Assembly (NCBI GenBank): GCA_006503475.1
Contig: RSEH01000400.1
Span: 1-25,290 of the forward strand
DNA from: Stentor roeselii
Lineage: Eukaryota; Ciliophora; Heterotrichea; Heterotrichida; Stentoridae
DNA: 25,290 bases
Direction of reading: 5' to 3'
Shown here: piece after piece, positions 1-25,290 of the stretch
Position numbering within the stretch: position 1 is the first letter of the stretch
Layout: every line of letters begins with the position of its first letter
Made by a program: the position numbers and the translations under genes
The notes under the pieces: model-generated
Told to the model about the DNA's origin: nothing
Seen by the model: only the letters and a program-made list of their open reading frames with translations
Databases searched by the model: none

Positions 1-429
1 GCCGAAACAACTGAAGAAGAAGCTGAAGAAGATGAAGCTGAAGAAGATGAAGCTGAAGAAGACGATGATGAAGAAGACGATGATGAAGAAGATGAAGATG
101 AGGATGAGGATGAGGATGAAGATGAAGAGGAAGAACGTGAAGAAGCTATGGAAGATACTATGGTTGATCAAGTTGAAGAGGAAATTGAAGAAGAGCAAGA
201 TTCAGAAAATGATGAAGAGACAACCGAAGATAATGAAGAGGACGGCGATGAAGATGAAGAAGCTGATGTAGATGAAGAAGGAGATGAAGATGAAGAAGAT
301 GATGGTTATGGAGAAACAGTTGATGTTCAAGTAGAATGCATTGACGGTGAATGCTCAGCTGTATTACTTCAAGAAAATGATAATCACTTCGAGTTCAGAG
401 TCAACTTGAAAGCAGTCGATGCTAATTAA
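1..429 (+). CDS. Acidic secreted repeat protein, 3' end only (gene 1, Glu/Asp type)
   Basis: This is the C-terminal 142 residues of a gene that begins before the window. The frame is open from base 1 to the TAA at 427-429. Residues 1 to about 100 are almost all Glu and Asp, with a short Ala-containing repeat at the start. The last 37 residues form an ordered-looking module: a TVDVQVEC strand-like stretch, Cys113 and Cys118 in a CIDGEC (CX4C) motif, a hydrophobic SAVLL, and an end in AVDAN. The same module ends gene 2 and lies near the end of gene 3, so it is a paralogue of both. By analogy with gene 2 it should have a signal peptide and be secreted, but that part is outside the window. Starting at the internal ATG at 148 would make a 93-residue protein; I reject that because the acidic frame runs unbroken through it. 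No enzymatic motif is visible. The role is unknown; an acidic matrix, silk or mucus component is a guess. Confidence 0.88.
   Translation, partial: AETTEEEAEEDEAEEDEAEEDDDEEDDDEEDEDEDEDEDEDEEEEREEAMEDTMVDQVEEEIEEEQDSENDEETTEDNEEDGDEDEEADVDEEGDEDEEDDGYGETVDVQVECIDGECSAVLLQENDNHFEFRVNLKAVDAN
19..63 (+). repeat. 15-bp tandem repeat, three copies, in gene 1
   Basis: Three in-frame copies of the 15-base unit gaagctgaagaagat encode EAEED. The last copy differs only by gac for gat. The array fades into Asp/Glu runs downstream and probably continues an array that starts before the window. Confidence 0.8.
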
Positions 430-438
430 TATGCATAA
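424..438 (+). other. Conserved stop-proximal block, gene 1 copy
   Basis: The sequence AAT-TAA-TAT-GCA-TAA covers the last Asn codon, the stop, and a second in-frame TAA three codons later. The same 15 bases (one mismatch in gene 2) occur at 6631-6645 and 21383-21397. It may simply be shared ancestry, or a 3' UTR element kept by selection; the sequence alone cannot tell. Confidence 0.7.
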
Positions 439-1523
439 GAAATTATTATTTCTAAATTAGACTCTATAACTATTTCATATTTTCATCGATTCTTCTAAAT
501 TTTTCTCGAAATATAGGGAATTACATTTCTGATATTTTATGAGAATTAGATAAGACTATTTGGTGTAAATATTAAGTTGATAGTAAAAAAGTTACTATTT
601 TTATAGATATTTAAAGTTGTGTTCTTTTAGATAAAGATTGTTTTTTAGAGAATTTTCATGTTTAGATTGATTCATTTTTTGTTAAATGTAGTCATTTATA
701 TTAATTTGTATGTTTTATTGAAAAATTTGAGGCCAAGTTGCTGATACTTGACATTACTTCAAGTTGACTTGTTGATTAAATAATTGATAAGATATTTGAT
801 TTGGATTAGTTTTGAAGAAGGATTATAGGAAGAAGTGATTTGAATCATGTTTTTTATGGAAAATAATATCATAGGTTAGGTTTGTGAAAGTAGATAATTT
901 TGGATTAAAATGATTCGGTATTATTTTTATAAGATAAAATTTAATATAATATCAATTTTTAATGAAACTCATAACAAATTTTTAAATGGTCCTACTTTAC
1001 GATATTACCACTCCTCGCAAATACACTTTACTACTTCTACTGTCTGACCACAATCACTTCTAAATTTAGGAAAATTTCAAGGTCTTTCTTCTCTAATCAA
1101 AACATATCATAAATTTCATCAAACTTAAAGTACTAAAAAATTATTTTATTATTCATATAAAACTCGAAAATATCTTATTTTTATAAAGAAATCTCTTATA
1201 TCATTCAGAAAATCACGATTATATCCAAATAATGCCTTTTATGCTGAAATAAATTTCCAAAAATGATTCTTATGCAGAAAATCTTTCTTCTGTACGATAA
1301 GTGAAAAATTTCCATCTTAATTAACTTTCTCTAACTTAATAGAGAATTTCAGAAATTTGATTATCACTTTACTTTAAACATAAAAATAAAACTTAACTTA
1401 CTTCGAAATGATTATAAAAAACTTCAAATGCACTATTTTGATGAGTTTCAGTACTTCAAGAAAATGAGTTCATCACGGAGGAGTCTTCTAAATCGAGGAA
1501 GTTTGAATAAATAAATATTTTTA

Positions 1524-1761
1524 TAAATTCTTCAAACAATCTAAATAAAAATTTATGAATATGAAAAATTAGTTCCTTATGAATAAATCTAAAAAACTTA
1601 TTTTAAATTCTTCAAAAATCTAAATCAAAAATTATGAATATGAAAATTAGTTCCTTATGGATAAATCTAAAAAACTTATTTTAAATTCTTCAAAAAATCT
1701 CAATAAAAAATTATGAATATGAAAAATTAGTTCCTTATTAATAAATCTAAAAAACTTGTTT
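1524..1761. repeat. 79-bp tandem repeat, three imperfect copies
   Basis: The phrases taaattcttcaaa and agttccttat recur at spacings of 78 to 80 bases: agttccttat starts at 1571, 1649 and 1729, and taaattc at 1524, 1604 and 1682. The copies differ by a few substitutions and one-base indels. The array is intergenic and very AT-rich, and has no evident coding potential. Confidence 0.88.
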
Positions 1762-2394
1762 AATTCTAGATATCATTAAATTCGTAATGAATTTTAATTC
1801 GATTAAAAAAACTAGTCAGGCCAATTACAAAGAAAGAAAAAGACAAAATTATGGAACTGGAAATCCAGGTTTTTTTTAAAATAAGAGAAAAGCTCAGAGT
1901 CTTAGCTGAAAGAATAGTCTAGGATCTTCTTATAAAAATAAAAATTTCAAGGAAATTATTATCAACTTGAATAGGTGTTGATGATATTTCAGTGTTTTCG
2001 AGATCACTATCGTCTAAGTTCACTGAATTCTTAGAATAATTCTTGAGATGTGAAGTAATTCAATATAACTAAAATAATTAAATACTTCTTTGAATTATCT
2101 AACATATTGAAATGAACTGATAAGATAGTTCAAATTATTAAATCTCTAATCACAATAAAAATAAGTCAAACCCCGAAAAAACTATATTAAGAATAATATA
2201 TCTCCATACATTCCACAAAAAAAACTAAATCATTATCTAAAAATATCAAGTTTAAGATATTTAATTATAACCTCTTTTTAACTGAGATCAATAACCCTCA
2301 GAAATCAAATAATCAAAGTATTCCTTATCCTAATAGCCAATGAATATTTACGAAAGAATGAAAATCAAGAAGAAAACAAGAAAAATCAGAAATT

Positions 2395-2431
2395 CATAAA
2401 AAATTTAAAATCATTTTTCCATCTTTCCGTT
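2395..2431 (+). promoter_or_regulatory. Candidate core promoter of gene 2
   Basis: A TATA-like cataaaa at 2395 lies 45 bases before the ATG, and TCCGTT at 2426-2431 lies 9 bases before it. Genes 3 and 4 have a clearer TATA box and the same TCCGTT at similar distances. TCCGTT may mark the transcription start, which would leave a very short 5' UTR. The gene 2 TATA match is the weakest of the three. Confidence 0.4.
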
Positions 2432-2439
2432 AATTTATT

Positions 2440-5400
2440 ATGAAATTTTTGAATCTTAGCGTTTTGACACTCTTGTCATTCGTAATTGTTTTTGGTGCAA
2501 CAGTCTACCCAGAAGGTAGAAAAGAAATTAATGATGCAATGATTGATGGTTATCCGGAACTTGTTGAACTTGGAGTAGGGATGTCGAAAACTACAACCAA
2601 GACTACGACTTATTCATCCAGCAACAGCATTAGTGGATCGAGCAAGAATTCTTCTAGCTCGAGCAACTCTTCAAGTAGCAATTCAAATAGCTCAAGTAGC
2701 TCAAACAGTACAAGTGGATCTGATAGCTCTAGTACTAGCGATTCAAGTGGATCTGGAAGTACTTCCAGTAGTACAAGCGATTCAAGTGGATCTTCCAGTG
2801 GCTCAAGTGGATCTTCCAGCGATTCAAGTGGATCTTCCAGTGGCTCAAGTGGATCTTCCAGCGATTTAAGTGGATCTTCCAGTGCAAGTAACTCAAGTGG
2901 ATCTTCCAGTACAAGTGGCTCTAGTGGAAGTTCCAGTACAAGCGACTCAAGTGATTCTTCAAGTACAAGCGACTCAAGTGGTTCTTCCAGTACAAGCGAC
3001 TCAAACGGTTCTTCCAGTACAAGTGAAAACGATTCAAGTGGATCAAGCAGCTCTAGCGATACGAGTAGTTCAGATACTGCAGGCACTTCCTCAGAGTCAG
3101 GTGAAAGCTCTAACTTAGAATCTTCTTTAAGTTATGCAGAGTCAAGTGAGAATCAAGAAAGAAATTTAATAGAATCAAGCTCTAATGAATCGAATTCTGG
3201 AGATTCTAGTTTGGAAGAACAAAGCTCGGAAGCAGCAAACTCAGTTGAAGATGATTCAGAAAATGTCGAGGAATCATCTACAAGTACTGAGTCAGACGAT
3301 TCTGAACCTACTGAAAATCCAACAAATCAAGAATTAACGGAAGAAAATGAAGAGGAGAATGGAGAAGAAAGTGAGCAGGCTAGTGAAGAGGATAATGCAG
3401 AGGAAAGTGAAGAGGTTAGTGAGAAGGAAAGTGAAGAGGCTAGTGAGGAGGAAAGTGAAGAGGCTAGTGAAGAGGAAAATGAAGATAAAAGTGAAGATGA
3501 AAATGAAGATGAAATAGAACAGGAAAGTGAAGAGGAAAGTGAAGAAAATAGTGAAGAGGAAAATGATGATGATAGTCATGACGAAAGTGAAGAAGACATT
3601 GAAGAAGAAAGTGAAGAGGAAAATGATGATGAAAGTGAAGAGGAAAATGATGATGAAGGTGATGATGAAGAGGATAATGAAGAGGACAGTGAAGAAGATA
3701 GTGAAGAGGAAAATGATGATGAAAGTGAAGAGGAAAATGAAGAAGAAAGTGAAGAGGAAAGTGAAGAGGAAAATGATGATGAAAGTGAAGAGGAAAGTGA
3801 AGAGGAAAGTGAAAACGAAAATGATGATGATGAAAGTGAAGAGGAAAATGATGATGATAGTCATGACGAAAGTGAAGAGGCTAGTGAAGAGGAAAGTGAA
3901 GAGGCTAGTGAAGAGGAAAGTGAAGAGGAAAGTGAAAAGGAAAATGGTGATGAAAGTGAAGAGGAAAATGATGATGAGGGTGATGATGAAGAGGATAATG
4001 AAGAGGACAGTGAAGAAGATAGTGAAGAGGAAATTGAAGAGGAAAATGATGATGAAAGTGAAGAGGAAAGAGAAGAGGAAAGTGAAGAAGTAAGAGAAGA
4101 GGAAAATGAAGAAGAAAGAGAAGAGGAAAATGAAGAAGAAAGAGTAGAGGAAAATGAAGAAGTAAGAGAAGAGGAAAATGAAGAAGAAAGAGTAGAGGAA
4201 AGTGAAGAAGAAAGAGTAGAGGAAAGTGAAGAAGAAAGTGAAGAAGAAAGAGTAGAGGAAAATGAAGAAGAAAGAGAAGAGGAAAGTGAAGAAGAAAGAG
4301 TAGAGGAAAATGAAGAAGTAAGAGAAGAGGAAAATGAAGAAGAAAGAGTAGAGGAAAGTGAAGAAGAAAGTGAAGAAGTAAGAGAAGAGGAAAATGAAGA
4401 AGAAAGAGTAGAGGAAAGTGAAGAGGAAAGTGAAGAAGAAAGAGAAGAGGAAAGAGAAGAGGAAAGTGAAGAAGTAAGAGAAGAGGAAAATGAAGAAGAA
4501 AGAGAAGAGGAAAATGAAGAAGAAAGAGTAGAGGAAAATGAAGAAGTAAGAGAAGAGGAAAATGAAGAAGAAAGAGTAGAGGAAAGTGAAGAAGAAAGTG
4601 AAGAAGAAAGAGAAGAGGAAAGTGAAGAAGAAAGAGAAGAGGAAAGTGAAGAAGAAAGAGTAGAGGAAAGAGAAGAGGAAAGTGAAGAGCCTAATCAATA
4701 TGAAAGTGAAGAAGAAAGATTAAATGAAAGTGAAGAAGAAACAGGAGAGGAAACAGAAAATGAAATAGAGAAGGAAAAAGAAAATGAAAGTGAAGAAGAA
4801 AGAGAAGAGGAAACTGAAGAGGAAAGAGAAAAAGAGAATGATGATGAAAGTGAAGAGGCAAATGAACATCAAAGTGAAGTAGAAAGAGACGAGGATAGCG
4901 AAAAGGAAAGAGAAAATGAAATTGAAGAAGAAAGAGAAGAGGAAAGTGAAGAAGAAAGAGAAGAGGAAATTGAAGAAGAAAGAGAAGAGGAAAGTGAAGA
5001 AGAAAGAGAAGAGGCTGATGAACATGAAAGTGAAGAAGAAAGAGTTAATGAAAGTGAAGAGGAAAGAGTTAATGAAAGTGAAGAGGAAAGAGAAGAGGCT
5101 GATGAACATGAAAGTGAAGAAGAAAGAGTTAATGAAAGTGAAGAAGAAAGAAATGAGGAAAGTCAAGATGTTGATGAACATGAAAGTGAAGAACAAAGAG
5201 AAAATGAAATTGAAGAAGAAAGAGAAGAGCAAAGTGAAGAGCAAAGTGAAGAGCAAAGTGAAGAGCAAAGTGAAGAAGAGGGTGATGATGAAAGTGAAGA
5301 GGCTAATGAACATCAAAATGAAGAAGAAAGAGAAGAGGAAAGTGAAGAAGAAAGAGAAGAGGAAACTGAAGAGGAAAGAGAAAAAGAGAATGATGATGAA

Positions 5401-6636
5401 AGTGAAGAGGCAAATGAACATCAAAGTGAAGAAGAAAGAGACGAGGATAGTGAAGAAGAAAGTGAAGAAGAAAGTGAAGAAGTAAGAGAAAAGAGAAGAG
5501 AATATGAAAGTGAAGAGGAAAGAAATGAGGAAAGTGAAGAGGAAAGAAATGAGGAAAGTGAGGAGGCTGATGAACATGAAAGTGAAAAAGAAAGAGTAAA
5601 TGAAAGTGAAGAAGAAAGAGAAGAGGAAAGTGAAGAAGAAAGAGTAGAAGAAAGAGTAGAGGAAAGAGAAGAGGAAAGTGAAGAGGAAAGTGAAGAGGCT
5701 AATGAGTATCAAAGTGAAGAAGAAAGAGTAAATGAAAGTGAAGAAGAAAGAGGAGAAGAGGAAAGTGAAGAGACTAATGAATATGAAAGTGAAGAAGAAA
5801 GAGAAGAGGAAATCGAAGAGGCTCGTGAAATAGCTAATGAACAAGAAACTGAAGAAGAAACTGAAGAAGAAAACGAAGAAGTAACTGAAGAAGAAAACGA
5901 AGAAGAAACTGAAGAAGAAAACGAAGAAGAAAACGAAGAAGTAACTGAAGAAGAAAATGAAGAAGAAAATGAAGAAGAAAACGAAGAAGAAAACGAAGAA
6001 GTAACTGAAGAAGAAAATGAACAAGAAAACGAAGAAGAAAACGAAGAAGAAAACGAAGAAGAAAACGAAGAAGAAAATGAAGAAGAAAACGAAGAAGAAA
6101 ATGAAGAAGAAAACGAAGAAGAAAACGAAGAAGAAAATGAAGAAGAAAACGAAGAAGAAAATGAAGAAGTAACTGAAGAAGAAAATGAAGAAGAAAACGA
6201 AGAAGAAAATGAAGAAGTAACTGAAGAAGAAAACGAAGAAGAAAACGAAGAAGAAAATGAAGAAGAAAATGAAGAAGTAACTGAAGAAGAAAACGAAGAA
6301 GAAAACGAAGAAGAAAACGAAGAAGAAAACGAAGAAGAAAACGAAGAAGAAAACGAAGAAGAAAACGAAGAAGAAAACGAAGAAGAAAACGAAGAAGAAA
6401 ACGAAGAAGAAAATGAAGAAGAAAATGAAGAAGAAAATGAAGAAGAAAATGAAGAAGAAAATGAAGAAGAGCAAGGTTCAGAATATGTTGAAAACTCATC
6501 AGAAGAGAGTGAGGATTGCCAAACAGTTGATGTTAAAGTTGAATGTATGGATGGTGAGTGCACAGCTGTTTTACTTGAAGAGAATAATGACCACTTAGAG
6601 TTCCGAGTGAGATTGAGGGCCATTGATGCTAATTAA
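2440..6636 (+). CDS. Giant Ser-rich / Glu-rich secreted repeat protein (gene 2)
   Basis: A single 1398-residue frame. Residues 1 to about 19 form a signal peptide (MKFL, hydrophobic core, likely cleavage after VFG), so the product should enter the secretory pathway. Residues 21-48 are the family cap with VYPEGR and YPELVELGVGM. Residues about 60-297 are Ser-rich (GSSS, STSD) and resemble dentin-sialoprotein or sericin-like composition. Residues about 298-1344 are extremely Glu-rich with a guest residue about every fourth position: Ser, Asn or Asp first, then alternating Ser and Arg, then Asn with occasional Val-Thr. The C-terminal cap has Cys1360, Cys1369 and Cys1374 (VECMDGEC) and ends AIDAN. 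Many Ser sit in S-x-E context, the known target of Golgi secretory (Fam20C-type) kinases, so heavy phosphorylation and calcium binding are plausible but inferred. The ATG is chosen because it alone gives the signal peptide shared with genes 3 and 4. No intron is needed. Function unknown; a structural extracellular protein is likely. Confidence 0.92.
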   Translation: MKFLNLSVLTLLSFVIVFGATVYPEGRKEINDAMIDGYPELVELGVGMSKTTTKTTTYSSSNSISGSSKNSSSSSNSSSSNSNSSSSSNSTSGSDSSSTSDSSGSGSTSSSTSDSSGSSSGSSGSSSDSSGSSSGSSGSSSDLSGSSSASNSSGSSSTSGSSGSSSTSDSSDSSSTSDSSGSSSTSDSNGSSSTSENDSSGSSSSSDTSSSDTAGTSSESGESSNLESSLSYAESSENQERNLIESSSNESNSGDSSLEEQSSEAANSVEDDSENVEESSTSTESDDSEPTENPTNQELTEENEEENGEESEQASEEDNAEESEEVSEKESEEASEEESEEASEEENEDKSEDENEDEIEQESEEESEENSEEENDDDSHDESEEDIEEESEEENDDESEEENDDEGDDEEDNEEDSEEDSEEENDDESEEENEEESEEESEEENDDESEEESEEESENENDDDESEEENDDDSHDESEEASEEESEEASEEESEEESEKENGDESEEENDDEGDDEEDNEEDSEEDSEEEIEEENDDESEEEREEESEEVREEENEEEREEENEEERVEENEEVREEENEEERVEESEEERVEESEEESEEERVEENEEEREEESEEERVEENEEVREEENEEERVEESEEESEEVREEENEEERVEESEEESEEEREEEREEESEEVREEENEEEREEENEEERVEENEEVREEENEEERVEESEEESEEEREEESEEEREEESEEERVEEREEESEEPNQYESEEERLNESEEETGEETENEIEKEKENESEEEREEETEEEREKENDDESEEANEHQSEVERDEDSEKERENEIEEEREEESEEEREEEIEEEREEESEEEREEADEHESEEERVNESEEERVNESEEEREEADEHESEEERVNESEEERNEESQDVDEHESEEQRENEIEEEREEQSEEQSEEQSEEQSEEEGDDESEEANEHQNEEEREEESEEEREEETEEEREKENDDESEEANEHQSEEERDEDSEEESEEESEEVREKRREYESEEERNEESEEERNEESEEADEHESEKERVNESEEEREEESEEERVEERVEEREEESEEESEEANEYQSEEERVNESEEERGEEESEETNEYESEEEREEEIEEAREIANEQETEEETEEENEEVTEEENEEETEEENEEENEEVTEEENEEENEEENEEENEEVTEEENEQENEEENEEENEEENEEENEEENEEENEEENEEENEEENEEENEEENEEVTEEENEEENEEENEEVTEEENEEENEEENEEENEEVTEEENEEENEEENEEENEEENEEENEEENEEENEEENEEENEEENEEENEEENEEENEEENEEEQGSEYVENSSEESEDCQTVDVKVECMDGECTAVLLEENNDHLEFRVRLRAIDAN
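2617..3330 (+). repeat. Ser-rich low-complexity region of gene 2
   Basis: Degenerate 12 to 30-base repeats encode GSSS, SGSSSDSS and STSDSS motifs. The clearest periodic part is 2740-3020, where ggatcttccag and gtacaagcgactcaag recur. The far end, from about 3100, grades into Glu-containing sequence. It acts as a Ser-rich linker between the N-terminal cap and the acidic core. Confidence 0.8.
3331..5840 (+). repeat. Glu-rich core of gene 2, Ser then Ser/Arg zones
   Basis: The sequence is built on a 12-base frame (x-Glu-Glu-Glu). To about 4060 the guest residue is mostly Ser, Asn or Asp. From about 4060 to 5820 a 24-base unit encoding ESEEEREE dominates, with Ser (AGT) and Arg (AGA) alternating. 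Longer duplications are visible: a segment starting at 3631 recurs at 3952 (321 bases), and one starting at 4804 recurs at 5356 (552 bases), including the marker ANEHQ. The coding strand is almost all purine. Confidence 0.88.
5848..6468 (+). repeat. 12-bp tandem array encoding ENEE / VTEE in gene 2
   Basis: An array of the 12-base unit gaaaaygaagaa (Glu-Asn-Glu-Glu) with scattered gtaactgaagaa (Val-Thr-Glu-Glu) variants. Ten consecutive units at 6289-6408 are identical with AAC for Asn, followed by five identical AAT units at 6409-6468. Such homogenised blocks point to recent unequal exchange or slippage. Copy number is expected to vary between individuals. Confidence 0.93.
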
Positions 6637-6645
6637 TTTGCATAA
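6631..6645 (+). other. Conserved stop-proximal block, gene 2 copy
   Basis: AAT-TAA-TTT-GCA-TAA: identical to the gene 1 and gene 3 copies except TTT for TAT. It includes the true stop of gene 2 (6634-6636) and a second in-frame TAA. Confidence 0.7.
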
Positions 6646-7092: not shown

Positions 7093-7990
7093 ATAGATGA
7101 TTTTATGATTTTCCTAATAATAGTCGATGATATCTTTGCAGTTTCTCAAAAAATCATCAATTATTTCACTATTATTATAACCTGGGAAAATCTTCCAATA
7201 ATTTCATTCTGATATCGGTCAAGGATTATAATTAAAGTGAAATAGACTCAATAGTCACTTAATCATTTTGATTCGTATTTTTTTCTATACCTTTCTTAAA
7301 TTATCACAGGGTAAAGTTCATATTTGTAGTTTTCTTCAATATTTTAGTTGCTAGAATTCTTTATAGCACATCTGCAATATATTGAACTTGATTAATATTT
7401 AAATTTTTCCTTCTCACTAAGAATACTTAAAATAATATTCATCTAAATTCAAGTTCATCTTTGATGAGTCCACAGAGACTCTAATCCTGCAAAACTTAAA
7501 TTATCTTATTCCTCAATTTCCTTCTTTAAAATCCGTCTTTCTCTAAACTCATTTGATTCCCCTCTTCAAATAATTCATCCCTGATAAACTATTCAAATCT
7601 TGAATATATTACAAGAGCTTTCCCCAACATAACTTAGAAATTTTTATAAGTGAAATAATTTCCCATTTATCAATAAGTTCAATACATGAACTTAAAGCTG
7701 TTGACAACAGATAATAAAACCAACTCTAACAATAAAATTAAATTTTTTACTGAATAAAGTCAAATAAGAAGCCTACCTGAGTCAAATAGAAAAATAAAGA
7801 GATTTTAAATAAACCATTTGTAAATCTTTCAATCAACATAAAGACAACTAATCAGAAATTACTTTAGAATTGTTTTGAATAATCAGAATATTAATGAAGA
7901 AATTTTTGAAGGAATTTAGATGTTAAGGCTTAAAATAACAAAAAATCAAAAAATTAGCTTAAATTTAGTTCCTTTTAAACTTTTCGAGAA

Positions 7991-8023
7991 TATAATGAGT
8001 AGAATAAGTTCTATTTATCCGTT
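7991..8023 (+). promoter_or_regulatory. Core promoter of gene 3 (TATA + TCCGTT)
   Basis: The stretch ttttcgagaatata at 7981-7994 and ttctatttatccgtttta just after it are almost identical upstream of gene 4. The TATA-like tataat at 7991 lies 42 bases before the ATG, and TCCGTT at 8018-8023 lies 27 bases after it, the usual distance to a transcription start. The implied 5' UTR is only about 12 bases. Confidence 0.6.
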
Positions 8024-8032
8024 TTAGTTATA

Positions 8033-17000: not shown

Positions 17001-20000
17001 AGATTTCTTTGGGACCTGGCATCAAAGATGAATCACCAATTGTTCCACTCATAAACCCCGACCCAAATCCGACCCTAGATCAAGTCATTCCTTCAAATCC
17101 CGAAATCTTAAACCAACCATCAACAAATCAACAATCAATTCCTGAAAATCTTCCTAAAATTGAAAAAGATTTTTCTTTTCAACATGGATTCTTAGATGAT
17201 TCATCAATTTTTCCACCGTTAATTCCTGGGCCGCCCTTCATTCCTTTGCCTCTTCCGAACCCTAACCAAGAGAATCTTTTAGAACCTGGATTTTTACATG
17301 ATAATTTAAATGAACCTTTAATTCCTGGGCCACTTCCTAATCTGGAGAAAGGAATTGAATTAGAACCGAAAAACTTTGATGAAAAAAATATTGATCAATT
17401 GTTAAATCCTGGAAAAATACAGAAATTTGAAGAAGATTTTATTTTAGAACGTGGATTCTTGGATGATGCAGAAAGTATTTCTATTGTAGTTCCTGAACAA
17501 CTTCCAAACCTCGACCAAGGTATTCTTTTCGAACCTGAGACCTTGAAAGAGCCAAAAAGTAATCCACAGTTAATTCCTGTCCCAATCCTAAACATCAGTG
17601 AAAATATTCTTTCAGGTCCTGAAATCTTAGATGAATTATCTATTGGTTCATTAGACATTTCTATAGAAACTCCAGATCTCAATGAAGGTATTTTTTTAAG
17701 ACCTGAAATCTTTGATGAAACAGAAAAAAATCCACTTTTGATCCCTGAACCTTTGCCTAACCTCGACCAAGAAGTTAATGTTGGACCTGGAATATTAGAT
17801 GAAAATATTCCACTCGTATTTCCTGGACCACTTCCTAAGCTAAACGAAGAAATTCCTTTAGGACCTGGAATTTTAGATAAATCATCAGATTTTCAATTGA
17901 TTATTCCTGAACCACTTACCAATCTTGACCAAAACATTATTTTAGGACCTGAAATTTTAGATAAATCATTAGATATTCCAAGCTTAATTCCTGGCAAGCT
18001 GCCTAACCTTAACCAAGAAGTTAATGTTGGACCTGGAATATTGGATGAAAACATTCCACTCGTATTTCCTGGGCCACTTCCTAACCTAAACGAAGAAATT
18101 CCTTTAGGACCTGGAATTTTAGATAAATCATCAGATATTCCAATGATAATCCCTGGGCCACTTACCAATCTTGACCAAAATATTCTTACAGGATCTGAAA
18201 TTGTAGATCAAGAAATAATTAATCCACCCTTAATTCCTGGGCCACTTCCCAACCTAGACCAGAAAATTCTATTAGGACCTGAAATCATAAATGAAGGAGT
18301 CATTAATCCACCTTTAATCCCTGGACCACTTCCCAATCTTGACCAAAACATTCTTTTAGGACCTGAAATATTAGATCAAGGATTAAATATTCCAAGTTTA
18401 ATTCCTGAAATACTACCTAAACTAGATGAAAAGCTTATTTTAGAACCAGAAATTTTAGATGATATAAAAAATCCAATACTCGAGCCAATTCCATACTTTG
18501 ATAAAACCATTTCATTACTGCCTGAAATAATAAAAGAGGCAGAAATTAATCCACTTTTAATCCCTGGGCCACTTCCTAATATAAACGAAGACAATCTATT
18601 AGAACCAGAAAGAAAAAATGATATAAATATTCCACTTTTAATTCCTGGACCCTTCCCTGATCTAAACGAAGGAATTTCTTTAGAACCTGGAATTTTAGAA
18701 ATACCAAAAAGTATTCCTTTTCCCAATTTAGACCAAAACATTCCTCTAGGACCTGAAATTTTAAATCAAGAAGAAAAAATTCTATCTTTAATTCCTGGCT
18801 TAGTCCCTGATATTAATGAAGGAATAACTTTAGGACCTGAAATCTTTGATCAAGGAGTTATTAATTCAGTCTTAATCCCTGGACAACTCAACACAGATAT
18901 TTCTTTAGCACCTGGAATAATAAATACAGGAATTAATCCACTTTTAATACCTGGACCACTGACTGAAATTAATGAAGGTATTTCTTTAGGACCGGAAATG
19001 AATAATGAAGATGGAATAAATCCACTATTAATTCCTGGGCCACTCGTAAACCTCAATGAAAAAATACCTTTAGGTCCTGGAAGCTTAGATATTTCATCAA
19101 ATATTCCACCTTTAATTCCTGGGCCACTTCCAAAACTTGACGAAAACATTCCTTTAGGACCTGAAATTTTAAATCAAGAAGCAAATATTCCACCTTTAAT
19201 TCCTGGGCCACTTCTCGATAAAATTCCTTTAGGACCTGAAATTTTGAATCAAGAAGCAAATATTCCACCTTTGATCCCTGGATTACTTCCAAAACTTGAC
19301 GAAAACATGCCTTTAGGACCTGAAATTTTTAATAAAGAAGCAAATATTCCTCCTTTAATTCCTGGGCCATTTCCCGATAAAATTCCTTTAGGACCTGAAA
19401 TTTTGAATCAAGAAGCAAATATTCCACCTTTAATCCCTGGATTACTTCCAAAACTTGACGAAAACATGCCTTTAGGACCTGAAATTTTGAATCAAGGAGC
19501 AAATATTCCACCTTTAATTCCTGGGCCACTTCCCGATAAAATTCCTTTAGGACCTGAAATTTTGAATCAAGGATCAAATATTCCACCTTTGATTCCTGGG
19601 CCACTTCCCAACCTCAACGATAAAATTCCTATAGTACCTGAAATTTTAAATCCAGGATCAAATATTCCTCCTTTAATTCCTGGATCACCTCCAAAACTCG
19701 ACCAAAACATTCCTTTAGTACCTGAAATTTTAAATCAAGGAAATTTTTCACCTCCCCTTCCTATGCCACTGCCTAATTCAGACGAAGAAATATGTATAGA
19801 ACCTGAAATTTCAACTCAACCATCTTTAATTCCAGTTTTAATTCCAGTTCCAGTTCCCACCCCAAATGAAGATATTTCAATAGTACCTGAACTAATGAAA
19901 AATCCAGGAATTAATCCACCTTTAATCCCTGGCCCACTGCCCAACATAAAAGAATTAATTCCTTCAGGACCTGAAATTTTAAATGAATTATCAAATCTTC

Positions 20001-21361
20001 CACTTATTATTCCTGAGCCACTTCTCAATAAAGACGAAAAAATTCCTTTAGGACCTGAAATTTTAAATCAAGAAGAAAATTTTTTACCTTTAATTCCTGG
20101 ACCACTTAATAATGACGATGATATTTGTATTGAACCTGAAATTTCTATTCAACCTTCAATTATTCCAGTTTTGATTCCGGTTCCTGTTTCTGAAGATGTT
20201 TTCTTAGGAAATGAAATTATTGGTGATGAAAATGTTTATCCACCTTTAAGTCCTGGGGAAATTCCGAAAGTTGAAGATTTTGTTGGTTTTGGACCTGATA
20301 TTATTGAGGATGTAGTGAGGAATATACCGGTTTTAAATCCTGTTTTACCTGAACATGGTCCGGTTTTTGTTTTAGGTGAAGGGGATTTGGATGAAGATTT
20401 ATTTGAATCAGGGATTACTCCACAAACTGAGCCAGGCCCCGATCTCGACGCAGTCATTGTATTTGGACCTGGAAACTCAGCAGAATCAGAAGACAGTTCA
20501 CTTAAACATGGTCAAGTTTCAGAGCCCGGCCCAGTCGTAGTTGTTTTAGGCCCAGGAATTTCAGATGAATCAGAAAATATTCAAAACTCTGAGGATAACC
20601 TTGGTCCAGTCGTAGTTTTACCTCCAGAGAACTCAAATGAAGAAGAAAGCCCAATTATTTGTGAAGACGATGAAGATTTAGCCGTGAAACTTTCTCTTTG
20701 GCTTTTAGGAGATAAGGTAATCGCAGGGTATGTTGACGAGTCATCTATTAATAGTGAGTCAGAAGAGACAAGAGGAGAAATTACTGAAAACAGAAAAGAT
20801 GATTACAACGAAGACGGTGATTATTTCCAAAGAATTGACATAAAAGTTGAATGTATTGATGGTGAATGTGCAATAGTAAATATTCAAGACAATATAGACA
20901 ATTTCTGGCTAAGACAAAAACCAAAGCACATCGGATTTGTGAAAAATCCAGATCCTGCAGGGGTTTTAAAGAAAGAAGACCCAATCGGATTTTTAAAGAG
21001 TTCAGGTCCGATTGAGTTTTTAAAGGATGAGGATAAAGAGATAAAAAATGAAAAAAATAAAAATTCTGAGTCTTTTGGATTTTTGGCGGAAAAACCTGGA
21101 TTATTATTAAAAGATGAAAAAATGATTGGAAATTTTGATGAAGATTTTGAAAAAGATAAGATTGGATTTCAGAGTGATGAAAATTTTAGAGGGGTAGAGG
21201 ATGGTGAAATGAATAGTGGATTAATAGAGGGAAAAAATGACATCTCACTGAATGAAAATCCAGAAAACAAGGCTGAAAACTCAGAAAATAATTTACTGAA
21301 AGAAAATTCAAAGCAAGATTCTCAAAACTCTGACGAAAACCCAGTCCAAGAAAACAAATAA
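8033..21361 (+). CDS. 4442-residue Ser/Thr/Asn-rich and Pro-rich secreted protein (gene 3)
   Basis: One unbroken frame of 13.3 kb. Residues 1-20 are a signal peptide (cleavage likely after LHA). Residues 21-50 are the VYPEGR cap ending VELGLGM. A Ser/Thr region follows with a short TESTSQS array and a Cys cluster at residues 165-170 (CCTCTC). Residues about 193-2270 are about 110 units of 19 residues such as SVSENTTSESHNDTLESSE, each with one or two N-x-T sequons; about 2270-2530 are 13-residue units such as SVSESSTSVDSSE. A hydrophobic IIIWLLNHAE near residue 2606 opens a Pro-rich half to about residue 4200, built of PLIPGPLPN and LGPEIL units; an LSLWLLGDK follows it. The family CX4C is at Cys4274 and Cys4279, followed by a unique charged 163-residue tail with IGFLK-like repeats. 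The start is fixed by its match to gene 4. It is likely an N-glycosylated mucin-like or silk-like extracellular protein; this is inferred from composition. No homologue recognised. Confidence 0.92.
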   Translation: MKFLALCILTFLTLVVDLHAKVYPEGRNGINDEVADDYLVLVELGLGMTQTTTATSDSSSDYNSENSASSSSSSSSDSTSSNNTNNTSEDTVESGSTETTSESTESTSESGSTETNSGSTESASQSTESTSQSTESTSQSTESTSQSTESTSESTETTSEEETECCTCTCASKEAEADSDESTSTESESSNNTSNSTESISEDTTSVSDNTTLESSESISESNTSVSENDTLESSESISENTTSVSDNTTLDSSESVYENTTIEYDNTTLESNENILENTTSITDNTTLESSESISENHTYISDNDTLDSSESLSENTTSVSDNSTLESSESVSESSTSVSENVTLESSESVSENITLESDNTTFESSESVSENTTSESHNDTLESSESISENTTLVFENDTLDSSESISENTTSVLENDTVESSESVSENITSESHNDTLESSESISENTTSVLENDTVEFSESVSENTTSESDNTTLESSESVSESSSLVSENDTVESSESVSESRSYVSENDTLESSESVSENITSESHIDTLESSESISENTTLVLENDTSDSTESISQNTTSESDNTTFESSESVSENNNSVSENDTLESSESVSENNNSVSENDTVESSESVLESSSSVSENETVESSESSSILENDTVESSESVSENTTSVLENGAVESSESISENTTSENNTVESSESVQESSSLVSDNDTVESSESISQNTTSESDNTTFESSESVPESSSSVSENDTVESSESISENTTSVSENDTLESSESVSENTTSESHNDTLESSESVSESSSVSENDTLESSESVSENTTLESDNTTLESSESISVFENETLESSEIVSESSSSVSENDTVESSESVSENTTSESDNTTFESSESVSENETSESYNDTLDSIESVSDNTTSEHDNTTLESSESISENITSVTDNSTLDSIESVSENTTIEYDNTTLDSSETVSENTTSASDNTTYESSESVSENTTSESHNDTLESSESVSESSTSESHNDTLESSETISENTTSESHNDTLESSESVSENTTSESHNDTLESSESVSESGTSESHNDTLESSETISESTTSTSENDTVESNESMPESSSSVSEYETLDSSESISENTTSVSDNITVESSESVSENTTSESDNTTLDSTESISENTTLESSESILESSSSVSDNETLDSIESISENTTSVSENDTVESSESVPESSSSVSDNDTLDSSESVSENTTSVSDNITFESSESISDNTTFDSSESISENNASISENTNLDSSESVSENITSDTDTSTFYSSESVSENATSEHDNTTLESSETISISENTTLESSETVQESSSSVLENESQDLTESISENITSESDNSTLESSESISENSTLESSESISESSSSVSENETSEYSESVSENTTSVTDNTTFYSSESVSEYTTSESDNTTLESSESISENTTSVTDNNTLESSESISESTTSVSDNDTVEYDESVSEYTTSESENATFESTESVSENYTLYSSESISENNNSEHDNDTSEYTESVPESSSLVSENDTLESSESVLENTTSVSENETVESSESISESTTSESDNTTFESSESVSENTTSESYNDTLESSESVSESSSSVSENDTVESSESVSESSSSVSENDTVESSESVSENSSYVSENDTVESSESVLESSSPVSENDTLESSESVSENTTSESHNDTVESSESVSENTTSVLENDTVESSESISESSYLVSENDTVESSESVSENITSEHDNTTLDSTESISENTTSELDNSTLESSESISENTTSVSDNDTLESSESISENTTSVSENETVESSESISENATLVSENDTIESSEIVSESSSSVSENDTVESSESVSEITTSEYHNDTLDSTESISENTTSVSENDTVESSESASESSSSASDNTTYESSESVLESTTSESHNDTVESSESISENTNSVSENDTVESSESVSENTNSESHNDTIESSESVSENTNLESHNDTVESSESVSENITSVSDNDTVEYNESVSENTTLYSSESFSENTTLVMENDTVESSESVFESSSSVSENYTVESSESVSENTTSESHIDTVESSESILESSSSVSENYTAESSESVSESSYLVLENDTVESSESVLEYTTLESSENISENTTLVSENDTLNSSESISENTTSVLENNTVESSESVSENTTSESDIKTLDSSESVSENSTSVSENDTVESSESVSISENDTVESSESVSENTTSESHNDTLESNESIFENTTSESHNDTLESSESVSESSTSVSENDTLDSSESVNESSSSVSENTTIDSSESALESSSSIQDTHIEDTTESVSESSTSVDSSESIIESSSSVESSESVSENTTSVIYNTTDDSSESITESSSSVQDNNTEDSTESVLESSSSVQDTTESVSESTSSVYSSESITESTTSVESSESVSESTTSEDSSESVLESSSSVVSSESVSESSTSVDSRESILESSSSVVSTESVSESSTLVDSSESVSESSSSVVSTESVSESSTSVDSSESVLESSSSAVSSESVLESSSSVESSERISESSSSVESSESISENTTSESESINTYSSEYTSTTNVEESSSETEYYEESSSKLEESSHIESSSSSELSSSDTESSNVTYESSEETSNNYRSGGDEPPIEVEPMIIIWLLNHAESELSSSEDDIGLFDNERFLGDDGRDPSDHGIVPEDHGKDFEDHFEPADNERDLEVDHGPIIILGPESEESSDESENIPLVKPPYTDNMVILGPEDPDDEKNIPLIEPEPGKTDNTKIDVIDQPPTPRLDPGIIIIPLDLTEESEDSEPLKHDPLPDFAYDFDLESVEEEKSQILKPWPIPDLDSDEEKNGQILLPYPLPEDSNNLIINPPFPQDNLKENILIFPENLEESSKIPLTTPESLPNSDVLIVPEILNEDSSKPLIPEKKPNIEKGILLGPEPLNEKSNPMINPLLNTDQGVLLGPEVFDEEIMNEALFDKDILLGPEVFDDDSSISIILRPLLKEEQGILLGPEILDEDSINQILNTGPLPKIDEEISLGPGIKDESPIVPLINPDPNPTLDQVIPSNPEILNQPSTNQQSIPENLPKIEKDFSFQHGFLDDSSIFPPLIPGPPFIPLPLPNPNQENLLEPGFLHDNLNEPLIPGPLPNLEKGIELEPKNFDEKNIDQLLNPGKIQKFEEDFILERGFLDDAESISIVVPEQLPNLDQGILFEPETLKEPKSNPQLIPVPILNISENILSGPEILDELSIGSLDISIETPDLNEGIFLRPEIFDETEKNPLLIPEPLPNLDQEVNVGPGILDENIPLVFPGPLPKLNEEIPLGPGILDKSSDFQLIIPEPLTNLDQNIILGPEILDKSLDIPSLIPGKLPNLNQEVNVGPGILDENIPLVFPGPLPNLNEEIPLGPGILDKSSDIPMIIPGPLTNLDQNILTGSEIVDQEIINPPLIPGPLPNLDQKILLGPEIINEGVINPPLIPGPLPNLDQNILLGPEILDQGLNIPSLIPEILPKLDEKLILEPEILDDIKNPILEPIPYFDKTISLLPEIIKEAEINPLLIPGPLPNINEDNLLEPERKNDINIPLLIPGPFPDLNEGISLEPGILEIPKSIPFPNLDQNIPLGPEILNQEEKILSLIPGLVPDINEGITLGPEIFDQGVINSVLIPGQLNTDISLAPGIINTGINPLLIPGPLTEINEGISLGPEMNNEDGINPLLIPGPLVNLNEKIPLGPGSLDISSNIPPLIPGPLPKLDENIPLGPEILNQEANIPPLIPGPLLDKIPLGPEILNQEANIPPLIPGLLPKLDENMPLGPEIFNKEANIPPLIPGPFPDKIPLGPEILNQEANIPPLIPGLLPKLDENMPLGPEILNQGANIPPLIPGPLPDKIPLGPEILNQGSNIPPLIPGPLPNLNDKIPIVPEILNPGSNIPPLIPGSPPKLDQNIPLVPEILNQGNFSPPLPMPLPNSDEEICIEPEISTQPSLIPVLIPVPVPTPNEDISIVPELMKNPGINPPLIPGPLPNIKELIPSGPEILNELSNLPLIIPEPLLNKDEKIPLGPEILNQEENFLPLIPGPLNNDDDICIEPEISIQPSIIPVLIPVPVSEDVFLGNEIIGDENVYPPLSPGEIPKVEDFVGFGPDIIEDVVRNIPVLNPVLPEHGPVFVLGEGDLDEDLFESGITPQTEPGPDLDAVIVFGPGNSAESEDSSLKHGQVSEPGPVVVVLGPGISDESENIQNSEDNLGPVVVLPPENSNEEESPIICEDDEDLAVKLSLWLLGDKVIAGYVDESSINSESEETRGEITENRKDDYNEDGDYFQRIDIKVECIDGECAIVNIQDNIDNFWLRQKPKHIGFVKNPDPAGVLKKEDPIGFLKSSGPIEFLKDEDKEIKNEKNKNSESFGFLAEKPGLLLKDEKMIGNFDEDFEKDKIGFQSDENFRGVEDGEMNSGLIEGKNDISLNENPENKAENSENNLLKENSKQDSQNSDENPVQENK
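8402..8485 (+). repeat. 21-bp tandem repeat, four copies, in gene 3
   Basis: Four in-frame units of 21 bases encode SQSTEST. The fourth has three substitutions. Gene 4 has a homologous four-copy 21-base array at 24591-24674 with Gly in place of Gln. Confidence 0.88.
8610..14850 (+). repeat. 57-bp (19-residue) Ser/Asn/Thr repeat array in gene 3
   Basis: About 6.2 kb of diverged units, typically 57 bases, encode a S(V/I)SEN-TTS-x-S-x-N-(D/T)-T-(L/V)-ESSE pattern. Shortened units of 36 to 54 bases are interspersed. NTT and NDT sequons recur at fixed places, and each unit carries an SSE. Some neighbouring units are nearly identical, for example around 10920-11190, showing local duplication; others have drifted. 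Confidence 0.92.
14850..15600 (+). repeat. 39-bp (13-residue) Ser-rich repeat array in gene 3
   Basis: The unit shortens to 39 bases encoding patterns such as SVSESSTSVDSSE and SVLESSSSVVSSE. Asn, and with it the sequons, largely disappears, while the SSE motif stays. It is most regular at 15125-15600. It looks derived from the 57-bp unit by loss of the central Asn-containing part. Confidence 0.88.
16540..20180 (+). repeat. About 84-bp Pro-rich repeat array in gene 3
   Basis: Roughly forty imperfect units of about 25 to 28 residues combine PLIPGPLPNLDQ with ILLGPEILDQ-like halves. Higher-order copies are visible: a three-unit block beginning at 17771 is repeated 246 bases later at 18017, and a two-unit block beginning at 19281 is repeated 159 bases later at 19440. 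Acidic residues (D/E) are regularly spaced between the Pro-Gly turns. Confidence 0.9.
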
Positions 21362-21382
21362 AAATCAAGTTATTTTAACTTT

Positions 21383-21397
21383 AATTAATATGCATAA
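21383..21397 (+). other. Relic of the ancestral stop region of gene 3
   Basis: AAT-TAA-TAT-GCA-TAA, identical to the end of gene 1, lies 8 codons beyond the current gene 3 stop and in the same reading frame. The paralogues use this TAA as their stop. The simplest reading is that gene 3 once ended here and now stops nine codons earlier at 21359-21361. Confidence 0.7.
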
Positions 21398-21627: not shown

Positions 21628-21633
21628 AATAAA
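21628..21633 (+). terminator. Possible polyadenylation signal of gene 3
   Basis: This is the first AATAAA after the gene 3 stop, 267 bases downstream. In DNA of this composition it could be chance, and variant hexamers lie closer. Confidence 0.25.
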
Positions 21634-23267: not shown

Positions 23268-23660
23268 TTCTATTTTTAATAAAGTGATTCAATTAAATAA
23301 AATTTTTATTCCTTTATCATAAATAGACACTTTATGATTATTCCTAATAATAATTCAATTCTATCTTCGCAGTACCTCAAAAGATGATTATTATTTCTCT
23401 ATGATTTTTACACCTGGCAATTCTTCCAATTATTTAATTCTGATTTTGGTAATTTTTCAAATACTTTAATCGAAATCAAATAGTCTCAATAATCACTTAA
23501 TTCTTCTGATTATTATTTTTCTCTATCTCTTCATGAATTATCACAGAGAAATATTCAAATCCATATTCTTGTATCCTTAGGTTCTTAGAATTCTTAACAT
23601 CACACGCAGAATATATAAACTCTTCATTCTGAATATTTTTTAATTTCCTTCTCTCACAAT

Positions 23661-23816
23661 ACTTAAAATAATATTCATCCGAATCTCTCCAGTTCTAAAT
23701 CCTTAAAAATCTTATACTTCTAATTCCATCCTCAATCTACTTAAAATAATATTCATCCGAATCTCTCCAGTTCTAAATCCTTAAAAATTTTATACTTCTA
23801 ATTCCATCCTCAATCC
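23661..23816. repeat. 78-bp direct tandem duplication
   Basis: Two adjacent 78-base copies (23661-23738 and 23739-23816) differ at one internal base and the last base. Both start acttaaaataatattcatcc. The gene 3 upstream region has only a single diverged counterpart near 7424, so this duplication is recent and specific to gene 4. Confidence 0.93.
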
Positions 23817-24247
23817 ATCTCTCCAATAATTCTTCAAAAAATCCTCATAATCTTGACCTAAATCCCATAAAAACTAATCTCTAATTCTTCTATCCTTAAA
23901 AACATATACCAATCCTCAACATCACTAAGAAATTTTTTAAATTGAAATAAAATTTCCCATTTATTCCACGTCTCGATAAATAACTTCAAATTTTTTGACA
24001 ACAAATAAAAAAACCAACTCTCTGAAAATTAAATTAAACCTTGAATCGATAAAAATTTAAAAGAAACCTTCCAAGGTAACTAAAAAAAATATTGATTTAA
24101 ATGATTTTTTTGTGAATCTTTCAATCAGCACACAAGGTACTGGTTAGAAGTTACCTTAGACCTTGTTTAAATAATCAGAAAGGATGAAAATGAATAAATT
24201 TATGAAGGAATAAGGATATGGTGAAGCTTTGAAAGAACGAAAATAAG

Positions 24248-24279
24248 AAATTCAGGAAAAATTATTTCTTCCTGAATTT
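24248..24279. repeat. 11-bp perfect inverted repeat upstream of the gene 4 TATA box
   Basis: The arms aaattcaggaa (24248-24258) and ttcctgaattt (24269-24279) are perfect reverse complements around a 10-base centre. The element ends 7 bases before the TATA-like sequence. The gene 3 promoter lacks the left arm. It could be a protein-binding palindrome or chance in AT-rich DNA. Confidence 0.55.
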
Positions 24280-24286
24280 TCGAGAA

Positions 24287-24316
24287 TATAAGGTGAATAA
24301 GTTCTATTTATCCGTT
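24287..24316 (+). promoter_or_regulatory. Core promoter of gene 4 (TATA + TCCGTT)
   Basis: The TATA-like tataagg at 24287 lies 40 bases before the ATG, and TCCGTT at 24311-24316 lies 24 bases further on. The whole segment from ttttcgagaatata to the ATG is nearly identical to that of gene 3, with small indels between TATA box and TCCGTT. Confidence 0.6.
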
Positions 24317-24326
24317 TTAGTTTATA

Positions 24327-25290
24327 ATGAAATTTTTGGCTTTATGCATTTTGACATTCCTGTCATTGGTCATTGATTTGCATGCGAAAGTCTACCCAGA
24401 AGGTAGAAATGGAATAAAAGATGCAGTGACTGTTGAGTACCTGACACTGGTTGAGCTGGGGTTAGGTACGTCTCAAACAGCAACAACAACCACGACCTAT
24501 TCATCAAGCGAAAATATCACTGAAAGTTCAGACAGCTCAAGCAGCAATAATTCAACAAGCTCAAACAATACAAGTGAAGGTACTGTAGACTCAGGATCGA
24601 CTGAAAGTACTTCAGGATCGACTGAAAGTACTTCAGGATCGACTGAAAGTACTTCAGGATCGACTGAAAGTACTTCTGGATCTGGATCCACTGAAACTAC
24701 TTCAGGATCAACTGAAAGTACCTCACAATCAACTGAAAGCACTATGGAATCAAGTGAAAGTAGTTCAGAGGAAGAGACTCAATGTGTATGTACATGTGTT
24801 TCAAAAGAAGCTGAAACAGACTCTGCTGAAAGTACTTCATCTTCTACTGAATCAGAGTCGTCTTATCATGCTTCAGATTCAACCGAAAGCGTCTCAGAGG
24901 ATACTACTTCAGTATCAGACAATACAACTTCAATATCAGACTATGCTACTTTAGAATCGAGTGAAAGTGTCTCAGAAAATACTACTTCAGTATCAGACAA
25001 TACTACTGTAATTTCAAGTGAAAGCATTTCAGAAAATAATACTTCAGTATCAGACAATAGTACTTTAGATTCCAGTGAAAGTGTCTTAGAAAATACTACT
25101 TCAGTTACTGATAATACTACTGTAGATTCGAGTGAAAGTGTTTCAGAAAGTAGTACTTTAGTATCGGAAAATGATACTTTAGAATCGAGTGAAAGTATTA
25201 TTGAAAATACAGTCGTTGATAATACAACTGAAGATTCTAGTGAAAGCGTCTCAGAAAATACTACAGTCGCTGATAATACAACTGAAGATT
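24327..25290 (+). CDS. Ser/Thr/Asn-rich secreted repeat protein, 5' part only (gene 4)
   Basis: The frame is open from the ATG to the window edge (321 codons), so the 3' end is missing. Residues 1-20 are a signal peptide nearly identical to gene 3 (MKFLALCILTFL, likely cut after LHA). Residues 21-49 carry VYPEGRNGIKDAV and end VELGLGT. A Ser/Thr region includes a four-copy 21-base array encoding SGSTEST, then a Cys cluster at residues 153-157 (CVCTC) in the context EEETQ before and SKEAE after, clearly homologous to the gene 3 cluster. From about residue 180 the Asn/Ser/Thr repeats begin (SVSENTTSVSDNTT), with N-x-T sequons and SSE motifs like gene 3. It is therefore a recent duplicate of gene 3 or shares its direct ancestor. 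Whether it also has a Pro-rich half and the CX4C cap cannot be seen. Confidence 0.92.
   Translation, partial: MKFLALCILTFLSLVIDLHAKVYPEGRNGIKDAVTVEYLTLVELGLGTSQTATTTTTYSSSENITESSDSSSSNNSTSSNNTSEGTVDSGSTESTSGSTESTSGSTESTSGSTESTSGSGSTETTSGSTESTSQSTESTMESSESSSEEETQCVCTCVSKEAETDSAESTSSSTESESSYHASDSTESVSEDTTSVSDNTTSISDYATLESSESVSENTTSVSDNTTVISSESISENNTSVSDNSTLDSSESVLENTTSVTDNTTVDSSESVSESSTLVSENDTLESSESIIENTVVDNTTEDSSESVSENTTVADNTTED
24591..24674 (+). repeat. 21-bp tandem repeat, four copies, in gene 4
   Basis: Four in-frame 21-base units encode SGSTEST; within each, tcaggatcgactgaaagt is unchanged across all four copies. A further diverged Gly-Ser unit follows. It is positionally equivalent to 8402-8485 in gene 3, but with Gly for Gln and stronger homogenisation. 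Confidence 0.9.

What the first reader, a model, noticed from the sequence alone, without database searches (positions are those of the whole stretch)
1..25290. Tandem family of giant secreted proteins with conserved caps and interchangeable cores
Genes 2, 3 and 4 share a signal peptide plus VYPEGR...VELGxG N-terminal module; genes 1, 2 and 3 share a C-terminal VEC(I/M)DGEC module. Between the caps the cores are compositionally unrelated: Glu-rich, Ser/Asn/Thr-rich or Pro-rich. This looks like a locus that keeps the secretion and assembly ends and swaps or grows the filling, as in silk and glue gene clusters. I recognise neither cap from a named family.
Basis: partly seen in the sequence, partly recalled or inferred. 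Interest (0 to 1): 0.8.

Follow-up and report, generated by a model that had tools for sequence, protein, structure and literature searches.

The report
Ciliate giant secreted proteins, shared caps
A single-celled, Stentor-like ciliate appears to carry a row of giant secreted proteins that reuse the same small end pieces around very different repetitive middles, probably as building material for a slime, shell, glue or granule filling.

Summary
The organism is not an arthropod: telomere repeats and stop-codon usage point to a heterotrich ciliate with the standard code (Stentor-like). Searches of its genome with single caps give 12 C-cap sites and 5 N-cap sites, plus one N-cap variant. The window genes run head to tail and may be part of a five-gene array continued on two other contigs. 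The C-cap is a short module with two invariant Cys. It closes acidic, Ser/Asn/Thr (sequon-rich) plus Pro-rich, and Ser/Gly proteins; it opens two proteins with heptad, coiled-coil-like cores; and in one gene it stands with no core. One paralogue (C517) is a chimera: about 320 codons match gene 2, and the sampled rest matches gene 3. Several members share a promoter block, and four share a 3' element; both are rare or absent at the other genes examined. No Pfam family passed its cut-off and no PDB sequence matched. Best explanation: co-regulated, secreted, structural or gel-forming proteins of a ciliate extracellular material or extrusome. Secretion, expression, cap function and the material itself are inferred, not shown.

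The parts
1..429 (+). gene 1, 3' end: acidic Glu/Asp core and C-cap; front part probably on contig C348
   Evidence: translation; first 145 nt match C348 acidic repeat units at 87-89%
313..426 (+). C-cap of gene 1 (VDVQVECIDGECSAVLL...AVDAN)
421..438 (+). shared 3' element AATTAATATGCATAA overlapping the stop of gene 1
   Evidence: core word in 0 of 41 other ORFs on the fetched contigs
2427..2439 (+). weak version of the promoter block (CCGTTA) of gene 2
2440..6636 (+). gene 2, 1398 aa: N-cap, Ser-rich stretch, Glu-rich core, C-cap
2440..2598 (+). N-cap of gene 2: signal-peptide-like start plus VYPEGR...VELGVG
3343..6470 (+). Glu-rich core repeats of gene 2 (periods 24, 36, 60 nt)
6514..6633 (+). 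C-cap of gene 2
6630..6645 (+). shared 3' element of gene 2
7990..8032 (+). promoter block of gene 3: TATA-like ATATAA, then CCGTTTTAG just before the ATG
8033..21361 (+). gene 3, 4442 aa (477 kDa computed): N-cap, Cys cluster, sequon-rich core, Pro-rich core, C-cap, tail
8033..8191 (+). N-cap of gene 3
8525..8542 (+). Cys cluster (CCTCTC, residues 165-170) between Ser-rich stretch and sequon core
8543..15862 (+). Ser/Asn/Thr core, 19-residue repeats; 182 of its 208 Asn start an N-X-S/T sequon
16130..20630 (+). Pro/Leu/Ile-rich core, repeats of about 25-28 residues; limits approximate
20822..20941 (+). C-cap of gene 3
20942..21358 (+). charged tail after the cap, kept in the C395 and C517 paralogues
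   Evidence: cap plus tail dN/dS 0.37-0.49
21380..21397 (+). shared 3' element of gene 3
24287..24326 (+). promoter block of gene 4
24327..25290 (+). gene 4, 5' part: N-cap, CVCTC cluster, sequon-rich core; rest probably on contig C395

Best explanation
This is a family of secreted, mostly very long, highly acidic, low-complexity structural proteins of a heterotrich ciliate. They enter the secretory pathway through N-terminal signal peptides, and the sequon-rich cores are probably heavily N-glycosylated. A small cap with two to seven Cys (probably a beta hairpin), near the C-end or right after the signal peptide, probably serves as the common packing or cross-linking unit. The repetitive cores (polyanion, glycosylation scaffold with Pro-rich part, Ser/Gly, heptad coiled coil) give the bulk properties. 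Shared promoter and 3' elements suggest that the genes are switched on together to make one composite secreted material: a mucous gel, lorica or holdfast secretion, cyst coat, or the filling of cortical granules (extrusomes). Shown here: the family, the caps, the core types, the chimera, purifying selection on most cap pairs, the shared flanking elements. Inferred: secretion, glycosylation, cross-linking, co-expression and the identity of the material.
For: Signal-peptide-like starts, by eye, in all 10 members whose start was read. C-cap at 12 sites genome-wide, N-cap at 5. Core types and composition; computed pI at the calculator's floor of 4.05 for all 13 pieces computed. 182 sequons in gene 3's core against a shuffle mean of 95 and maximum of 114 in 500. 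Heptad spacing in the C391 core: 59 of 76 Leu/Ile/Val have another at +7. dN/dS: C-cap 3 of 3 pairs 0.22-0.38, cap plus tail 3 of 3 pairs 0.37-0.49, N-cap 8 of 10 pairs 0.35-0.56. C517 chimera. Promoter: CGTTT within 40 nt of the ATG in 7 of 10 members against 1 of 65 other starts. A genome-wide promoter pattern also hit C94, already a weak cap hit, with its ATG in frame with the cap, and C180, whose first 20 residues look like a signal peptide. 3' element in 4 of 9 members against its core word in 0 of 41 other ORFs.
Against: No expression, proteome or localisation data; no signal-peptide predictor was available. The sequence would fit several secreted roles. The cap model is weak (mean pLDDT 63), so cross-linking by the cap is a guess; only two Cys are invariant in the 12 caps, gene 3's cap is not terminal, and two of gene 3's ten Cys lie inside the Pro-rich core. 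Two N-cap pairs with gene 1 have dN/dS 0.83 and 1.03, and some C-cap pairs are near saturation at synonymous sites. Gene 2 and C517 carry a weak or no promoter block, C153 lacks the ATAA box, and 5 of 9 members lack the exact 3' element. The promoter pattern's reversed control gave 4 hits against 10. Members are paralogues, so the Fisher tests overstate independence.
Confidence: 0.68

Rival explanations
1. Contents of regulated secretory granules (cortical extrusomes or mucocyst-like bodies): polyanionic proteins condensed inside the cell, perhaps with calcium, that swell into a gel on release. A sub-case of the best explanation that names the compartment.
For: Extreme acidity and low-complexity cores; heterotrichs, including Stentor polymorphus, have cortical granules that are extrusomes (PMC9774955, passages seen).
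Against: No Pfam family above cut-off, so no known granule-protein domain; the passages seen on S. polymorphus extrusomes concern sterols, not proteins.
Confidence: 0.3
2. Lasting extracellular structure: lorica, mucous tube, holdfast glue or cyst wall, built like silk or mucin.
For: Cap and core architecture with coiled-coil-like and Pro-rich cores; Stentor attaches by a holdfast that secretes a sticky substance (PMC9774955); another ciliate group builds its shell from self-assembling secreted proteins (PMC13408134, abstract and passages).
Against: The species, and so whether it makes a lorica, is not known; no aromatic or Gly/Ala-rich core as in Tintinnidorin or spider silk.
Confidence: 0.35
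3. Surface-coat or variable-antigen-like family that diversifies by recombination, rather than a material.
For: Chimeric C517 and divergent cores show recombination.
Against: No hydrophobic membrane anchor or GPI-like tail is visible, by eye, at the C-ends read; most cap pairs under purifying selection.
Confidence: 0.1
4. The long frames are non-coding repeat expansions that happen to be open.
For: Low complexity and tandem DNA repeats; the 84-nt repeat comparison shows no coding bias (pS 0.386, pN 0.422), perhaps from misregister.
Against: pS above pN with third-position excess in the 57-, 159-, 24- and 12-nt comparisons; most cap and tail pairs with dN/dS below 0.6; signal-peptide-like starts; shared flanks.
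Confidence: 0.05

Closest known systems
Tintinnidorin (tintinnid ciliate shell proteins; PMC13408134, abstract and passages seen)
   Same: Secreted structural protein family of ciliates with signal peptides; its authors report no homologues outside tintinnids; repeated modules.
   Different: Tintinnidorin is rich in Ala, Gly, Asp, Tyr and Trp, has folded beta modules with linkers and no or rare Cys. Here the cores are Glu-, Ser/Asn/Thr-, Pro-, Ser/Gly- or heptad-rich, Trp is rare (4 in gene 3), and caps carry invariant Cys. Different ciliate class.
Spider and insect silk proteins (general knowledge; architecture also stated in PMC13408134)
   Same: More complex conserved ends around a tandem-repeat core.
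   Different: Core chemistry differs between members here; caps are far shorter than spidroin domains (recalled); no Pfam match; the cap may be at either end or stand alone.
Gel-forming mucins (general knowledge)
   Same: Giant secreted proteins with repetitive Ser/Thr-rich cores and few, clustered Cys.
   Different: No Pfam domain was found, so none of the mucin end domains; Asn sequons are enriched; some cores are pure polyanions.
Balbiani-ring salivary silk proteins of midges (recalled, no call)
   Same: Giant secreted repetitive proteins from a gene family.
   Different: Animal and gland-specific; no relation was tested.
Tetrahymena Grl and Paramecium trichocyst matrix proteins (recalled, no call)
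   Same: Acidic secreted proteins of ciliate granules.
   Different: As recalled they lack giant low-complexity cores; no relation was tested beyond Pfam.

Membership tests
Spidroin or silk fibroin | recognisable terminal domains (Pfam) | tested here: not met
   no Pfam family above cut-off for caps or whole window proteins (one sub-threshold DUF4241 hit, 16.4 bits against 27)
Spidroin or silk fibroin | repetitive core between conserved N- and C-terminal modules | tested here: met
   genes 2 and 3; but C391 and C91 have the cap at the N-end
Gel-forming mucin | von Willebrand D or C-terminal cystine-knot domains | tested here: not met
   no such Pfam match
Gel-forming mucin | dense glycosylation of the core | not testable with these tools
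   sequon enrichment only
Tintinnidorin | Trp/Tyr-rich, Cys-poor folded modules | tested here: not met
   composition and invariant cap Cys against PMC13408134
Heterotrich ciliate genome | telomere repeat CCCTAACA | tested here: met
   547 overlapping matches to three repeats, control 0; many listed places start within the first bases of a contig; repeat reported for Blepharisma in PMC9942806
Standard-code heterotrich (Stentor) rather than Blepharisma (UGA = Trp) | TGA not used as Trp | tested here: met
   0 TGA and 82 TGG in 7660 in-frame codons of the 30 fetched of 135 scored kinase matches; stops in 12 of 135, none TGA
Heterotrich ciliate genome | 15-16 nt introns | tested here: inconclusive
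   one 15-nt GT..AG stretch with A at position 10 in L037; not counted genome-wide
Secreted protein family | signal peptide | tested here: inconclusive
   hydrophobic starts by eye in 10 members; no predictor available

The most novel reading that the evidence does not exclude
A single cell has a modular biomaterials kit: one small Cys-hairpin cap, joined to interchangeable acidic, glycosylated, Pro-rich, Ser/Gly and coiled-coil cores, moved about by recombination and run from a shared promoter block, so that chemically different filaments and gels co-assemble into one composite extracellular material. This would be a protist counterpart of silk and mucin gene clusters that arose independently.
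Probability: 0.35. Interest if true: 0.75.

Novelty: new variant of a known kind. Interest (0 to 1): 0.58.

Why it matters
No protein family for heterotrich slime, loricae, holdfast glue or granule matrix surfaced in the listings of my paper searches (open-access library only). A short, searchable cap and a shared promoter block turn that into a testable list of genes in a ciliate class that includes the regeneration model Stentor. It would also show caps kept while cores are exchanged, as argued for animal silks, in a lineage with no glands or tissues.

Tried and rejected
Rejected: an arthropod, nematode or mite origin (my own first guesses), once ciliate-type neighbours, telomeres and code were seen. 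Rejected: Blepharisma, because TGA is not Trp (against PMC9942806). The species is not identified: the ribosomal RNA search failed by machine error and was not repeated, and a COX1 search found nothing. A first count of codons in kinase loci was wrong because minus-strand loci were not turned; it was redone. The first cap DNA pattern gave 0 hits because it put ATG next to VYPEG. A first intron scan used an AT cut-off that would have missed my own example intron; it was redone without it. The PDB profile search gave only four norovirus capsid hits at E about 4, taken as noise. The DUF4241 match to the C395 tail is below cut-off and was dropped. The cap model was too weak for a fold search, so none was run. 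In the chimera map the stretch of C517 from about base 1750 to 4000 of the frame was not sampled. Four promoter-pattern hits (C80, C137, C152, C193) were not read.
Full report
Setting. The window is the whole of contig C347 (25290 bases) of an unnamed 44.4 Mb genome in 522 contigs. It was guessed to be an arthropod; it is a ciliate. The pattern for three CCCTAACA repeats has 547 overlapping matches and no match to the reversed control. Of the places listed, those on the + strand start within the first bases of a contig or overlap such a start; those on the - strand lie at high coordinates, whose distance from the contig end I did not check. This is the telomere repeat reported for Blepharisma (PMC9942806, passages seen). 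Of 135 protein kinase matches scored (of 1346 candidates) 12 contain a stop, always TAG or TAA, never TGA. In the 30 of these 135 that were fetched, 7660 in-frame codons hold 82 TGG, 0 TGA, 0 TAA and 1 TAG. The single TAG ends a 15-base GT..AG stretch with A at position 10, the form described for Stentor introns (PMC9505925, passages seen). Blepharisma uses UGA for tryptophan, so a standard-code heterotrich such as Stentor is the best fit. The species is not known.

The observation. The four frames are as stated. The N-caps of genes 2, 3 and 4 share 27 invariant columns of 53 and the C-caps of genes 1, 2 and 3 share 11 of 40. Gene 3's C-cap is followed by about 140 more residues. The cores do differ: gene 2 is 47% Glu; gene 3 has a Ser/Thr/Asn part with 19-residue repeats and a Pro/Leu/Ile part with repeats of about 25-28 residues. 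But genes 2, 3 and 4 all begin with a Ser-rich stretch.

The wider family. With single caps as queries the genome gives 5 N-cap places and, over three C-cap queries, 12 C-cap places, the weakest (C94) at E 0.04. The complete C395 gene carries an N-cap variant whose own search found only itself. Reading the places: C348 holds an N-cap gene running off towards acidic repeats that match the first 145 bases of the window at 87-89%, so it is probably the front of gene 1. C395 holds, inward from its end, a gene 3-like C-part (probably the rest of gene 4) and then a complete 596-residue acidic member. That makes a head-to-tail array of five, if the contigs are neighbours; no exact end overlap was found, so this is inferred. 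C517 has a complete 2094-residue member. C30 has an acidic C-part. C153 is a 374-residue Ser/Gly-rich member. C99 is 117 residues: signal-peptide-like start, short linker and cap, no core. C391 and C91 carry the cap near the N-terminal end, followed by a Ser/Leu/Glu core; in the 326 C391 core residues read, 59 of 76 Leu/Ile/Val have another at +7, the mark of a coiled coil. The C391 frame is given as 2264 residues and that of C91 as 732; I read 431 and 195. C94 is a partly read cap. The fuller caps have seven Cys; those of the window have two or three. The C..G.C of the hairpin holds the only three columns invariant in all 12.

Real genes, and modules that move. C-cap pairs have dN/dS 0.22-0.38 (3 of 3, some near synonymous saturation), cap plus tail 0.37-0.49 (3 of 3), N-caps 0.35-0.56 in 8 of 10 pairs and 0.83 and 1.03 in two pairs with gene 1. 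Repeats differ more at third positions in the 57-, 24-, 12- and 159-base comparisons but not in the 84-base one. From there, in the windows sampled (to about base 1750 and again from 4000), it matches gene 3 at 74-93% and gene 2 only in scraps. Which gene is the mosaic cannot be said.

Glycosylation scaffold. In gene 3's Ser/Asn/Thr core 182 of 208 Asn start an N-X-S/T sequon; shuffles give a mean of 95 and a maximum of 114 in 500. This points to selection for N-glycosylation, which was not tested.

Shared flanks. A block ATAA...(T)CCGTTT(CC/TG)AAC...ATG lies directly before the start codon of several members. CGTTT within 40 bases of the ATG is found in 7 of 10 members and in 1 of 65 other starts (42 mechanical ORFs of 150 or more residues on the fetched contigs and 23 of 30 kinase loci whose start could be placed). 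The three members without it are gene 2 (CCGTTA), C517, and C91, for which only 15 upstream bases were held. As the members are paralogues, the Fisher value (4.6e-7) overstates the case. A genome-wide pattern built from four members gave 10 places against 4 for the reversed control. Four are the members it was built from. C94 is a fifth member; its ATG lies 129 bases, in frame, before the cap match, of which I did not read the first 60 or so. C180 is new, and the 20 residues I could read look like a signal peptide. Four were not read. After the stop, genes 1, 2, 3 and the C395 C-part share AATTAAT(A/T)TGCATAA; the complete C395 gene and C517 have near versions; C30, C99 and C153 do not, though C99 and C153 had only 27 and 35 bases of 3' sequence. 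The core word is in 0 of 41 other ORFs.

No known relatives. Pfam gave nothing above cut-off, PDB sequences nothing but noise. A three-sequence AlphaFold model of the window C-cap gave a beta hairpin at mean pLDDT 63, too weak to search with. Eukaryotic sequence databases were not available, so 'no relative' covers only these libraries. The listings of eight paper searches showed no heterotrich extracellular structural protein family that I could match. I saw passages of five papers (and one abstract in full), no whole text.

What it most likely is. Giant, acidic, apparently secreted proteins with a common small cap, several core chemistries, shared flanking elements and recombination between members fit a set of building or gel-forming proteins for a secreted material. 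In heterotrichs the candidates are cortical extrusomes, holdfast secretion (both mentioned for Stentor polymorphus, PMC9774955), lorica and cyst wall (chitin in the lorica of a heterotrich, Folliculinopsis, is mentioned in PMC10946202). Sequence alone does not choose among them. The ciliate shell protein family described in what I saw, Tintinnidorin (PMC13408134), differs in composition, Cys content and class.

Noticed in passing
C348:1789-2841 and 3-2381 (- strand), locus L013: The acidic repeat of the C348 copy of gene 1 changes reading frame at about residue 350: sequencing or assembly error in a repeat, or a real frame break. No 15-16 nt intron was apparent by eye.
   Followed up: partly
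L073 (C180:4530-4592): Promoter-block hit in front of a start codon that opens a signal-peptide-like sequence (MFFRSLTSFFLLGLINATLI); possibly another secreted gene of the same programme.
   Followed up: partly
C80:87640, C137:91132, C152:63110, C193:24856: Four further genome matches to the promoter pattern, not read; the reversed control also gave four.
   Followed up: no
L022, L023 (C30:108395-128394): Three pepsin-like aspartic protease genes with signal-peptide-like starts, and two very similar OTU-like genes in tandem, lie on the contig of the C30 cap gene (all by eye).
   Followed up: no
C395:7149-10916 and C348:18546-21947 (- strand): Large Cys-repeat (EGF- or furin-like, by eye) multi-pass membrane proteins on both contigs that seem to flank the array.
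   Followed up: no
window 1524-1761 and 23660-23815: Short tandem repeats (about 80 nt x3, 78 nt x2) in the AT-rich intergenic stretches, which are 1.4-3 kb long in the window.
   Followed up: no
C395:1226-3130 (+): One frame that looks, by eye, like a seven-helix receptor fused to a phosphatidylinositol phosphate kinase-like domain.
   Followed up: no
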